Assembly: GCF_024138125.1 (NCBI RefSeq) | Contig: NZ_CP099993.1 | Coordinates: 1,984,001 to 2,048,000, forward strand | Source: Halorussus salilacus | Lineage (GTDB): Archaea > Halobacteriota > Halobacteria > Halobacteriales > Haladaptataceae | DNA: 64,000 bases | Reading direction: 5' to 3' | Part shown: positions 24,085 to 28,069 of the stretch, piece after piece | How the letters are laid out: each line of letters begins with the position of its first letter | Numbering within the stretch: position 1 is the first letter of the stretch | Made by a program: the position numbers and the translations under genes | The notes under the pieces: generated by a model | What the model saw: the letters and a program-made list of their open reading frames with translations, nothing else | Database searches by the model: none | What the model was told of the DNA's origin: nothing

Positions 24085-24243
24085 CTGATCTCCTTTCTCG
24101 CTGGCACTCGACGCCGCCAGCCGCCGCTCTCCGCTGGCGCGTCGGCTCGGCCTCCCGAGCGTCCTCCGCTGACCGTTCGGTTCCGGCTGACTTCCGCGCC
24201 CGCCTTCGGTAGCGTTTTGGGCGCGGTACCCGTCTTCTCGCGT

Positions 24244-25527
24244 ATGGCAGACTATCCGACCATCAGCGAGCAGGTCGACGATCTGGAGACCGCTCGCGAG
24301 GATGGTCATCGGAAGATGGACTGGGCGCGCGAACACATGCCGATTCTGACCGCGATGCAGGCCGACTTCGACGAGAACCGCCCCTTCGAGGGCGAGCGCA
24401 TCGGCATGGCGATGCACGTCGAGGCCAAGACCGCCGTGCTGGTCGAGACCCTCGCGGAGGCGGGCGCGGAGGTCGCGGTCACGGGCTGTAACCCCCTCTC
24501 GACCCACGACGACGTGAGCGCCGCGCTCGACGAGCATCCCAACATCACCTCCTACGCCAAGCGCGAGGTCGACGACGAGGAGTACTACGCCGCCATCGAG
24601 GCGGTCATCTCCCACGAGCCGACCATCACGGTCGACGACGGGATGGACCTCGTCGCGGCCATCCACGAGGACTACCCCGAACTCATCGACTCCATTGTCG
24701 GCGGGGCCGAGGAGACCACCACGGGCGTCCATCGCCTGCGGGCGATGGACGCCGACGGCGCGCTGAAGTACCCCGTGTTCGCGGTCAACGACACGCCGAT
24801 GAAGCGCCTGTTCGATAACGTCCACGGCACGGGCGAGTCTTCCCTTGCTAATATCGCGATGACCACGAACCTCTCGTGGGCGGGCAAGAACGTCGTCGTC
24901 GCGGGCTACGGCGACTGCGGCCGGGGTGTCGCCAAGAAGGCTTCGGGGCAGAACGCCAACGTCGTCGTCACCGAGGTCGAACCGCGACGCGCCCTCGAAG
25001 CCCACATGGAGGGCTACGACGTGATGCCGATGGCCGAGGCCGCCGAGATCGGCGACGTGTTCCTCACCACGACGGGCAACCGCGACGTAATCACCCGCGA
25101 GCACTTCGAGAAGATGCAAGACGGCGTCCTGCTCGCCAACGCGGGCCACTTCGACGTGGAGGTCAACCTCGACGACCTCTCGGACCTCGCCGTGAACGAG
25201 CGCGAGGCCCGCGAGGGCGTCCGGGAGTACGAGATGGAAGACGGCCGCAGGCTCAACGTCCTCGCGGAGGGTCGGCTCGTCAACCTCGCCAGCCCAATCG
25301 CGCTCGGCCACCCGGTCGAGGTGATGGACCAGAGCTTCGGCGTGCAGGCCGCCTGCGTCCGCGAACTGGTCGAGAACGGCGAGCAGTACGACGCCGGAGT
25401 CCACGAGGTGCCCGACGAACTCGACGAGGAAATCGCGGAGATAAAGCTGGACGCCGAGGGCGTCGAGTACGACGACCTGACGCCCGAGCAGGCCGAGTAC
25501 ATGGGTAGCTGGCAGCACGGGACGTAG
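24244..25527 (+). CDS. ahcY: Adenosylhomocysteinase
   Basis: 427 residues; NAD-dependent reversible hydrolysis of SAH to adenosine and homocysteine, keeping methyltransferases uninhibited. Recognised by VTGCNPLSTHDDVSAAL near 79-95, DDGMDLV near 131, AVNDTPMKRLFDNVHGTGES near 180-199, the Rossmann loop GYGDCGRGVA at 221-230 and the ending PEQAEYMGSWQHGT. Length and end match archaeal enzymes. It is followed by the duplicated structured element at 25626-25749. Confidence 0.97.
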   Translation: MADYPTISEQVDDLETAREDGHRKMDWAREHMPILTAMQADFDENRPFEGERIGMAMHVEAKTAVLVETLAEAGAEVAVTGCNPLSTHDDVSAALDEHPNITSYAKREVDDEEYYAAIEAVISHEPTITVDDGMDLVAAIHEDYPELIDSIVGGAEETTTGVHRLRAMDADGALKYPVFAVNDTPMKRLFDNVHGTGESSLANIAMTTNLSWAGKNVVVAGYGDCGRGVAKKASGQNANVVVTEVEPRRALEAHMEGYDVMPMAEAAEIGDVFLTTTGNRDVITREHFEKMQDGVLLANAGHFDVEVNLDDLSDLAVNEREAREGVREYEMEDGRRLNVLAEGRLVNLASPIALGHPVEVMDQSFGVQAACVRELVENGEQYDAGVHEVPDELDEEIAEIKLDAEGVEYDDLTPEQAEYMGSWQHGT

Positions 25528-25625
25528 ATTCGGTAGCTATTTGTTGGGATTTCGCCCTGCGATTAGTCGCAGGGTAACAATCTACACAAAGCATTTATCT
25601 TTCAGGACGCACAACCTGCACATGC

Positions 25626-25688
25626 GCAGGTGGCAAGGAAGACGATGATCCCTCAGTGAAGGGGTATGAGACTTCCAGCGCCACCTGC
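25626..25688 (+). ncRNA. Candidate structured RNA hairpin, unit 1
   Basis: Outer stem GCAGGTGGC (25626-25634) pairs with GCCACCTGC (25680-25688). Inside are 8 nt, the 30-nt core CGATGATCCC...ATGAGAC (25643-25672) and 7 nt. The core itself can fold with AUCCCU/AGGGGU around CAGUGA, and its GA-rich flanks resemble a kink-turn internal loop. No known RNA class is recognised; the strand is arbitrary. Confidence 0.4.
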
Positions 25689-25733
25689 TTGACGGTGTGT
25701 GGTCGATGATCCCTCAGTGAAGGGGTATGAGAC
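25643..25733. repeat. Two identical 30-bp repeats separated by 31 bp
   Basis: The same 30 bp occurs at 25643-25672 and 25704-25733 without a mismatch. Read on the minus strand it starts GTCTCATACCCC and ends ATCATCG, with an internal CCCT/AGGG hairpin and a length like type I CRISPR repeats. The 31-bp interval and lone pair would make a one-spacer array, but the flanking complementary arms argue for structured RNA instead. Confidence 0.9.
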
Positions 25734-25749
25734 CTCTATCTCCGTCAAG
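25688..25749 (+). ncRNA. Candidate structured RNA hairpin, unit 2
   Basis: Outer stem CTTGACGG (25688-25695) pairs with CCGTCAAG (25742-25749). Between each arm and the identical 30-nt core lie exactly 8 nt. The stem sequence differs from unit 1 while pairing and geometry are kept. The right arm runs into the 3' end of the DUF3800 gene on the other strand and is followed by GGCGTTTTG. Confidence 0.4.
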
Positions 25750-26443
25750 TGGCGTTTTGTAGGCATCTATCCACGATATGATCAGCGGCATCTGCACAGG
25801 AACCGTCTTTCGTATAGCTTCTCCACGAGTACGCGACTAAATCTGCGATTTGAATGCCCGGAATTCGGCTACTGTCTCCCGTCTCGACGTTGATTTCTGG
25901 CCCATCGAGTTCTTCGAGCAGGGCACAAACGTTCTCCGCTGGGGTTTTCCAGACCTCTGCATCCGGAACAAGATGGATTTTATCTACCTCCTGTGTATTG
26001 ACGAGGTCCGCCTCCGTTAGAGGACTCAAGATTCTTGCAAGAGATAATCGTTGGAGAACGTGTGGTGCATCCGTTTCAGACATGTAGTTGGACAGAATCC
26101 GCGTTCCTAACTCGGGATTGAGACTGTGGTAGGAGTATTGAACGGGAGTGTTCCGTTGCCATGGATACGGTGGGTCGGCAACCGTTCCGTCTTCGTATGC
26201 AAAGTTTTCCAACGTTTCGAGAAACGTACCGAGACGGTCTTTGGGTAGTTGGCTTCCCTTTAGTTCTCCTACGTCGCCAAGACCACGAGTGCCGGAGATA
26301 TGTTTCGAAAGTTCAGCACGAGCGTTATCTAGTACGTACTGGGGAGAGTTGTTCGATAAACACCAGCAACTAGCGACCGTATAGTGTTCTCCCCGTGCGT
26401 GATGACCGCTCTCGTCGACGAAAATATAGAGGTCGTCCACCAT
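25745..26443 (-). CDS. DUF3800-family protein
   Basis: 232 residues. It opens MVDDLYIFVDESGHH, the conserved acidic D-E-S-G strand of DUF3800, and later has QIADLVAYSW near 207-216, the second conserved acidic block. The family has an RNase H-like core and is often found with mobile or defence genes; no activity is established. GC is clearly lower than in flanking genes, suggesting acquisition. The stop codon lies within the stem arm of the neighbouring repeat element. Confidence 0.85.
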   Translation of the reverse strand: MVDDLYIFVDESGHHARGEHYTVASCWCLSNNSPQYVLDNARAELSKHISGTRGLGDVGELKGSQLPKDRLGTFLETLENFAYEDGTVADPPYPWQRNTPVQYSYHSLNPELGTRILSNYMSETDAPHVLQRLSLARILSPLTEADLVNTQEVDKIHLVPDAEVWKTPAENVCALLEELDGPEINVETGDSSRIPGIQIADLVAYSWRSYTKDGSCADAADHIVDRCLQNAT

Positions 26444-27479: not shown

Positions 27480-27571
27480 CCGCCATGTTCACCGCGCTCC
27501 CGGGGGACTTAACATCCGGAAGGAACCACGATGGAGTATGACCGATGCGACGGGATCGCGGGGGTGTTCGC

Positions 27572-28069
27572 GTGTCCAACGCCAAGGGTAACCGCCGGGA
27601 GCGCGAACTCGTCAATCGCCTCGACGAGGCCGGATTCGCGGTGATGCGCGCGCCCGCCTCCGGTGCGGCGACCGAGCGCGAACTCCCGGACGTGCTGGCG
27701 GGCGACGGCGACGTCTTCTACGCCATCGAGGCCAAGTCGAGTTCGGGCGACCCCATCTACCTCACCGGCGAGGAGGTCGAGGCGCTGGTCTACTTCTCGC
27801 GGAACTTCGGCGCGAAGCCCAAGATCGGCGTGCGGTTCGACCGCGAGGACTGGTACTTCTTCCACCCCGCCGACGTTCACCAGACCGACGGCGGCAACTA
27901 CCGCGTGAAGAAGGAGGCCGCGCGCGAAGGCGGCGACCCGATGGACGCCCTCCGGGACGACGGGGACGCCGGGGCCGACGCCGACGACGGACACGCCATC
28001 CGGGACGTGCTGGTCGCGGTCGAGCAGGGCGTCCTCTCGGTCGACGAGGCGGCGTCGATGCTCGAATAA
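27572..28069 (+). CDS. hjc: Holliday junction resolvase Hjc
   Basis: 165 residues from GTG 27572 ([21 protein letters not shown]), chosen over an in-frame ATG at 27545 because it starts at the family N-terminus and follows GGGGGTG. The PD-(D/E)XK nuclease catalytic set is visible: Glu 10, Asp 40 (ELPDVL), Glu 53 and Lys 55 (AIEAKSSS). Hjc cuts four-way DNA junctions symmetrically in recombination. An acidic linker and a 25-residue C-terminal helix pair ([24 protein letters not shown]) extend beyond the core fold. Confidence 0.93.

What the first reader, a model, noticed from the sequence alone, without database searches (positions are those of the whole stretch)
25626..25749. Duplicated 30-nt core, each copy enclosed by a different complementary stem
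The identical 30-bp core occurs twice. Each copy is bracketed by its own inverted repeat (GCAGGTGGC/GCCACCTGC and CTTGACGG/CCGTCAAG) with nearly the same geometry: 8 nt, core, 7-8 nt. Different stem sequence with kept pairing is the sign of a selected RNA fold. The middle segment is shared by both stems (base 25688). It does not match an RNA class I know; the geometry resembles a guide pocket or tandem aptamer, and the core has kink-turn-like GA runs. It lies after ahcY and touches the 3' end of a DUF3800 gene.
Basis: partly seen in the sequence, partly recalled or inferred. Interest (0 to 1): 0.7.

Follow-up and report, generated by a model that had tools for sequence, protein, structure and literature searches.

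The report
Twin-hairpin RNA partnered with DUF3800 nuclease
The repeated element is a small structured RNA gene that sits tail-to-tail against the gene of a probable RNA- or DNA-cutting enzyme (DUF3800) in many salt-loving archaea, most likely as that enzyme's dedicated RNA partner or brake.

Summary
In detail: an identical 30-nt core occurs twice, each copy inside its own complementary stem. It is a real structured RNA on the + strand, with a BRE/TATA-like promoter and a T-run. Thirty-one hairpins from Halobacteria (30 distinct) covary strongly: 13 of 18 pairs show changes on both sides.

A covariance model from Halorussus found 10 loci in genomes outside its seed; 9 lie tail-to-tail against a DUF3800 gene. 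In reverse, 33 of 36 DUF3800 places in 392 order genomes carry a convergent structured RNA: 19 this hairpin, 14 a different three-way-junction RNA. Neither matches Rfam. The closest known kind is the DUF3800 RNA motifs, of which DUF3800-VI lies upstream on the same strand. The RNA outlives its protein: DUF3800 is missing or broken at 10 of 36 RNA loci.

Best reading: a two-part RNA-nuclease module in which the RNA binds and restrains the nuclease, like an antitoxin but with new gene order. Binding and inhibition are inferred, not shown. H/ACA guide, CRISPR and ahcY riboswitch are not supported.

The parts
25587..25598 (+). BRE/TATA-like promoter CAAAGCATTTAT, 40 nt before the first hairpin
   Evidence: Motif search: the same motif lies 31-41 nt upstream of the hairpin in 22 of 23 loci
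25626..25688 (+). Hairpin 1: 9-bp lower stem, small internal loop, upper stem GGAAG/CTTCC, conserved internal loop, UCCCU/AGGGG stem, hexaloop
   Evidence: Covariance model hit 84.4 bits; fold; covariation
25643..25672 (+). 30-nt core, copy 1
25688..25749 (+). Hairpin 2: 8-bp lower stem, wider internal loop, upper stem GGTC/GACC, same core
   Evidence: Covariance model hit 69.4 bits; fold
25704..25733 (+). 30-nt core, copy 2
25755..25758 (+). TTTT run 5 nt after hairpin 2, candidate archaeal terminator
   Evidence: Sequence; termination itself not tested
25745..26443 (-). DUF3800 gene (232 aa), convergent, its 3' end overlapping hairpin 2 by 5 nt
   Evidence: PF12686, 35.4 bits against a cut-off of 21; conserved D10, E60, D161, D201
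24217..25527 (+). ahcY (S-adenosylhomocysteine hydrolase), upstream neighbour, not part of the module
   Evidence: PF05221 and PF00670

Best explanation
The element is a small RNA gene of about 125-135 nt made of two tandem hairpins with the same core, transcribed on the + strand from its own promoter. Together with the convergent DUF3800 gene it forms a two-part RNA-protein module. Shown here: the RNA fold, its strand, its promoter-like motif, its fixed tail-to-tail position against DUF3800, and the matching of two RNA kinds to two DUF3800 clades. Inferred: the DUF3800 protein (RNase H-like nuclease with intact acidic residues) binds the conserved internal loop of the hairpins; each hairpin occupies one protein; and the bound RNA restrains the nuclease until stress or infection releases it, as RNA antitoxins of type III restrain their toxins. 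Separate promoters let the cell make RNA in excess of protein. The RNA can then outlive a lost or broken nuclease, because keeping it is harmless or protects against a newly arriving copy.
For: RNA fold: alignment A2 has 31 hairpins (30 distinct), 95.2% of cells paired, 13 of 18 pairs with changes on both sides, 72 such cells against 18.5 in shuffles and at most 15 in slid controls. Strand: an invariant U-G pair (30 of 30) would be an A-C mismatch on the other strand. Promoter-like motif in 22 of 23 loci. Partner: 14 of 18 type-1 loci found by RNA alone in 293 genomes have DUF3800 next to them, all convergent; of the 10 in genomes outside the seed, 9 do. Of 36 DUF3800 places in 392 genomes, 33 have a convergent type-1 (19) or type-2 (14) RNA. 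Gap from hairpin end to DUF3800 stop: median 9 nt, range -5 to 78, n = 20. Mobile: on two haloarchaeal plasmids with the same layout. Residues D10, D161, D201 invariant and E60 at least 90% in 27 proteins. DUF3800 is described as an RNase H-fold nuclease previously associated with putative ncRNAs (PMC10910872, passages). Asymmetry: DUF3800 absent or broken at 10 of 36 RNA loci (type 1: G001-ahcY, G005, G007, G188 absent, G185, G135 broken; type 2: G070, G250 absent, G160, G015 broken); intact DUF3800 without a recognised RNA at 3 of 36 places.
Against: No expression, binding, toxicity or inhibition data. Gene order differs from type III toxin-antitoxin operons, and no pseudoknot is seen. DUF3800 has no PADLOC match. 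Orphan RNAs kept with compensatory changes (G005, G007) could mean a function unrelated to DUF3800. Three of 36 DUF3800 places have neither RNA kind (G251, G007 contig 4, G375); G007 contig 4 and G375 have other hairpins by eye only. The fold prediction failed (mean pLDDT 34), so the RNase H fold is taken from print and from conserved residues.
Confidence: 0.48

Rival explanations
1. The RNA is an activating cofactor, scaffold or guide of the DUF3800 nuclease, as omega/re-RNAs are for IscB and TnpB, so that the RNA-protein complex is the active enzyme.
For: Fixed pairing of RNA kind and protein clade; DUF3800 occurs with Cas12a2 loci and was suggested to act in interference or crRNA biogenesis (PMC10910872, passages).
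Against: No unpaired variable stretch that could be a guide: core and loops are conserved and the variable parts are paired. RNA persists where DUF3800 is gone or broken (10 of 36 loci), which a cofactor should not.
Confidence: 0.2
2. The RNA or its convergent transcription controls DUF3800 expression in cis, by antisense pairing with the mRNA 3' end or by transcription interference.
For: Tail-to-tail layout, median gap 9 nt and 5-nt overlap in the window.
Against: Antisense pairing would not demand a covarying fold, a conserved core or tandem copies; orphan RNAs are kept without the gene.
Confidence: 0.12
3. The hairpin is a host small RNA with its own role (for example in ahcY or translation control) and DUF3800 has merely settled beside it.
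For: Seven loci lie just after ahcY, including G192 in another family; G005 keeps the RNA with no DUF3800 detected in the genome.
Against: Most loci are not at ahcY yet have DUF3800; most DUF3800 genes with no type-1 RNA have another convergent structured RNA.
Confidence: 0.12
4. Archaeal H/ACA (or C/D) guide RNA bound by L7Ae.
For: Two stacked hairpins with tandem G-A potential resemble haloarchaeal double H/ACA RNAs (recalled).
Against: ANA box directly after the lower stem in 1 of 30 hairpins; pocket closed by a covarying upper stem; no Rfam match.
Confidence: 0.03
5. Two-repeat CRISPR remnant.
For: 30-nt repeats with a 31-nt spacer.
Against: The 'spacers' form stems that covary across genera; one or two copies only; next to DUF3800.
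Confidence: 0.01

Closest known systems
DUF3800 RNA motifs I-XI (Weinberg et al. 2017, recalled; Rfam e.g. RF02969, RF02968, RF02915)
   Same: Structured RNAs found next to DUF3800 genes.
   Different: No Rfam match for type 1 or type 2 here. The one example seen, DUF3800-VI (Rfam type Cis-reg; 29.8 bits, below its cut-off of 35), lies directly upstream on the same strand; ours is convergent at the 3' end with its own promoter-like motif, and in Halobacteria.
Type III toxin-antitoxin systems (ToxIN, CptIN, TenpIN)
   Same: Nuclease-like protein paired with a structured RNA that may occur as tandem repeats; on plasmids and chromosomes.
   Different: Type III: one operon, RNA repeats upstream of the toxin, a terminator between, pseudoknotted RNA (PMC5086642, passages). 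Here: convergent genes, hairpins without pseudoknot, RNase H-like rather than ToxN-like protein.
TnpB/IscB nucleases with omega/re-RNA (recalled)
   Same: RNase H-fold nuclease with an adjacent structured RNA.
   Different: No guide-like variable end; RNA on the opposite strand; separate promoter-like motif.
Archaeal H/ACA sRNA (recalled)
   Same: Stacked hairpins with an internal loop and purine-rich core.
   Different: No ANA box, no open pocket.

Membership tests
DUF3800-associated structured RNA (broad kind) | Conserved RNA structure next to DUF3800 genes | tested here: met
   33 of 36 DUF3800 places; 9 of 10 loci outside the seed genomes
DUF3800-I to XI, as held in Rfam 15 | Match to a curated family model | tested here: not met
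   No match at gathering score or up to E 5 and E 2
Type III toxin-antitoxin | Toxin gene downstream of the RNA in one operon | tested here: not met
   DUF3800 is on the opposite strand, tail-to-tail
Type III toxin-antitoxin | Antitoxin RNA in tandem repeats | tested here: inconclusive
   Two hairpins at some loci, one at others
Type III toxin-antitoxin | RNA neutralises a toxic endoribonuclease | not testable with these tools
   Needs expression tests
Archaeal H/ACA guide RNA | ANA box after the lower stem | tested here: not met
   1 of 30 hairpins
Archaeal H/ACA guide RNA | Open pocket complementary to an rRNA target | tested here: inconclusive
   Pocket largely closed by a covarying upper stem; rRNA targets were not searched
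Kink-turn (L7Ae site) | Tandem G-A pairs next to a 3-nt bulge | tested here: inconclusive
   GAUG/AUGA gives G-A, A-G, U-U but the loop is symmetric in most copies (sequences)
CRISPR array | Many repeats with unrelated spacers near cas genes | tested here: not met
   One or two copies; spacers pair and covary
RNase H-like nuclease (DUF3800 protein) | Conserved acidic residues | tested here: met
   D10, D161, D201 invariant, E60 at least 90% in 27 proteins

The most novel reading that the evidence does not exclude
Halobacteria carry an undescribed class of RNA-restrained nuclease modules (antitoxin-like or anti-virus): a mobile DUF3800 nuclease with a tail-to-tail, separately transcribed RNA partner that exists in at least two unrelated folds matched to two protein clades, and that is kept as a protective orphan after the nuclease is lost.
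Probability: 0.35. Interest if true: 0.85.

Novelty: new variant of a known kind. Interest (0 to 1): 0.6.

Why it matters
DUF3800 turns up with Cas12a2 and with orphan RNAs in print, and its role is not known. Here nearly every DUF3800 gene found in one archaeal order has a convergent structured RNA, in two folds matched to two protein clades. That gives defined RNA-protein pairs in a group with good genetics (Haloferax), so whether the RNA restrains or activates the nuclease becomes a simple test.

Tried and rejected
Rejected: H/ACA guide (ANA box in 1 of 30; closed pocket); CRISPR remnant (flanks covary); repeated protein motif (core spacing 61 or 62 nt is not a multiple of 3); ahcY riboswitch (the RNA lies after ahcY, and most relatives are elsewhere but beside DUF3800).

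Led nowhere: Rfam over the window and 20 relatives; PADLOC; DUF3800 in phages and viral contigs; PDB sequences (no credible relative); structure prediction with only two sequences (pLDDT 34), so no fold search was run. The RNA was not found outside the order: 4 of 344 phylum genomes match, all of the same order. A search for DUF3800-I in 30 relatives gave 0. Weinberg 2017 is not held and is cited from recall.

Against my reading: 3 of 36 DUF3800 places lack both RNA kinds; RNA without DUF3800 also fits an independent function. The broken DUF3800 of G185 and G135 could be sequencing errors. The 14 type-2 hits with intact DUF3800 are circular, since the model came from 13 DUF3800 flanks; the new type-2 loci are 4, of which 2 have a decayed DUF3800 and 2 none. 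G199 and G163 appear to be the same plasmids as two PLSDB records, so those are not independent.

Full report
What is there. The window lies in an archaeal genome whose closest named matches are Halorussus. The 30-nt core occurs twice (25643-25672, 25704-25733), each copy inside its own complementary stem. Nothing else in the window matches it and the element occurs once in the genome. It folds better than all 200 shuffles (z = -3.62).

A selected RNA on the + strand. Exact core matches gave Halorussus halobius and H. litoreus, and a relatives search gave more members of the same genus. A model of 12 hairpins found relatives in other families of the order. The final set of 31 hairpins (30 distinct) shows changes on both sides in 13 of 18 pairs, 72 such cells against 18.5 in shuffles and at most 15 in slid controls. 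The model was made from part of these sequences and the alignment was fitted to it, so the counts lean towards the structure; but stem letters differ widely between genera while pairing is kept. An invariant U-G pair works only on the + strand. A BRE/TATA-like motif stands 31-41 nt before the hairpin in 22 of 23 loci, in the window at 25587-25598; only G188 lacks it. Many loci have a T-run soon after the last hairpin, in the window TTTT at 25755-25758. So it looks like an independent RNA gene. At 10 loci the hairpin is doubled (G000, G001, G002, G003, G192, G154, G250, G122, G203; G336 by eye), elsewhere single.

The partner is DUF3800. In the window a DUF3800 gene (PF12686) converges on the RNA and overlaps it by 5 nt. 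Of 18 type-1 loci with E below 0.001 in 293 order genomes, 14 have a DUF3800 gene beside them, all convergent. Of the 10 loci in genomes not used for the model, 9 do: G122, G135, G154, G163, G185, G192, G203, G205, G250; the miss is G188. The gap has a median of 9 nt (n = 20). Starting from the protein instead, 36 DUF3800 places in 34 of 392 order genomes carry at their 3' end the type-1 hairpin in 19 and a second RNA in 14. Three carry neither: G251, G007 contig 4, G375. Two haloarchaeal plasmids have the same layout; one of them appears to be the same replicon as G163.

The second RNA. DUF3800 genes of a different clade carry a three-way-junction RNA of about 93-164 nt, also convergent. In 13 sequences 21 of 38 predicted pairs have compensatory changes. 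It shares with type 1 the motif C-(G/A/C)-AUG opposite GA-G, a candidate binding site (by eye). Rfam matches neither RNA.

The RNA outlives the protein. Type 1 stands without DUF3800 after ahcY in G001, G005 and G007, and in G188; with a split or interrupted DUF3800 in G185 and G135. In G001 the locus is ahcY-RNA-hydrolase where the window has ahcY-RNA-DUF3800-hydrolase. G005 and G007 differ by a compensatory change in the lower stem. Type 2 stands without DUF3800 in G070 and G250 and with a decayed one in G160 and G015. Together 10 of 36 RNA loci lack an intact DUF3800. A guide or cofactor would be useless there; a brake, or an RNA with a role of its own, would not.

The protein. D10, S12, G13, D161, S191, G196, Q198 and D201 are invariant in 27 proteins and E60 and K62 nearly so, as expected of an active RNase H-like nuclease. 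Papers describe DUF3800 as an RNase H-fold nuclease near Cas12a2 and VI-F/V-A2 loci, previously associated with putative ncRNAs (PMC10910872, PMC12669027; passages). My structure prediction failed.

Mechanism. Most likely DUF3800 and its RNA form a complex in which the RNA restrains the nuclease. Shown: fold, strand, promoter-like motif, fixed convergent layout, pairing of RNA kind and protein clade. Inferred: binding, inhibition, purpose (defence or stress). The cofactor/guide model is the strongest rival; an independent host role of the RNA is next.

Known or new. DUF3800 RNA motifs are a known kind (DUF3800-I and -IX are named in the Rfam 15 paper PMC11701678, passage). The one known example seen, DUF3800-VI, lies upstream on the same strand. 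The haloarchaeal RNAs differ in sequence, fold, layout and host range, and type 1 was confined to this order in a search of 344 phylum genomes. A text search for DUF3800 found 11 papers, of which the 10 listed have no title on haloarchaea. I file it as a new variant of a known kind.

Noticed in passing
L055:1500-1592, L058:1140-1267, L062:1574-1705 and others: A second, unrelated three-way-junction RNA is convergent with a second clade of haloarchaeal DUF3800 genes; no Rfam match.
   Followed up: yes
L057:1500-1780 and L109:2180-2440: Two DUF3800 genes with neither RNA kind have other GC-rich hairpins and TATA-like motifs at the 3' end by eye; possibly a third kind.
   Followed up: partly
L085:1501-1562: Weak type-1 hairpin (G094, 35.5 bits with the later model) with no DUF3800 nearby.
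   Followed up: partly
L125:1892-1944: Sub-threshold DUF3800-VI RNA just upstream, same strand, of a DUF3800 gene on a Paraburkholderia plasmid.
   Followed up: no
L096 / G163 and L126 / G199: DUF3800 modules of both kinds lie on haloarchaeal plasmids; the Natronorubrum one is near a HicAB toxin-antitoxin pair.
   Followed up: no
window 27545-28069: Archaeal Holliday junction resolvase Hjc gene (PF01870).
   Followed up: no
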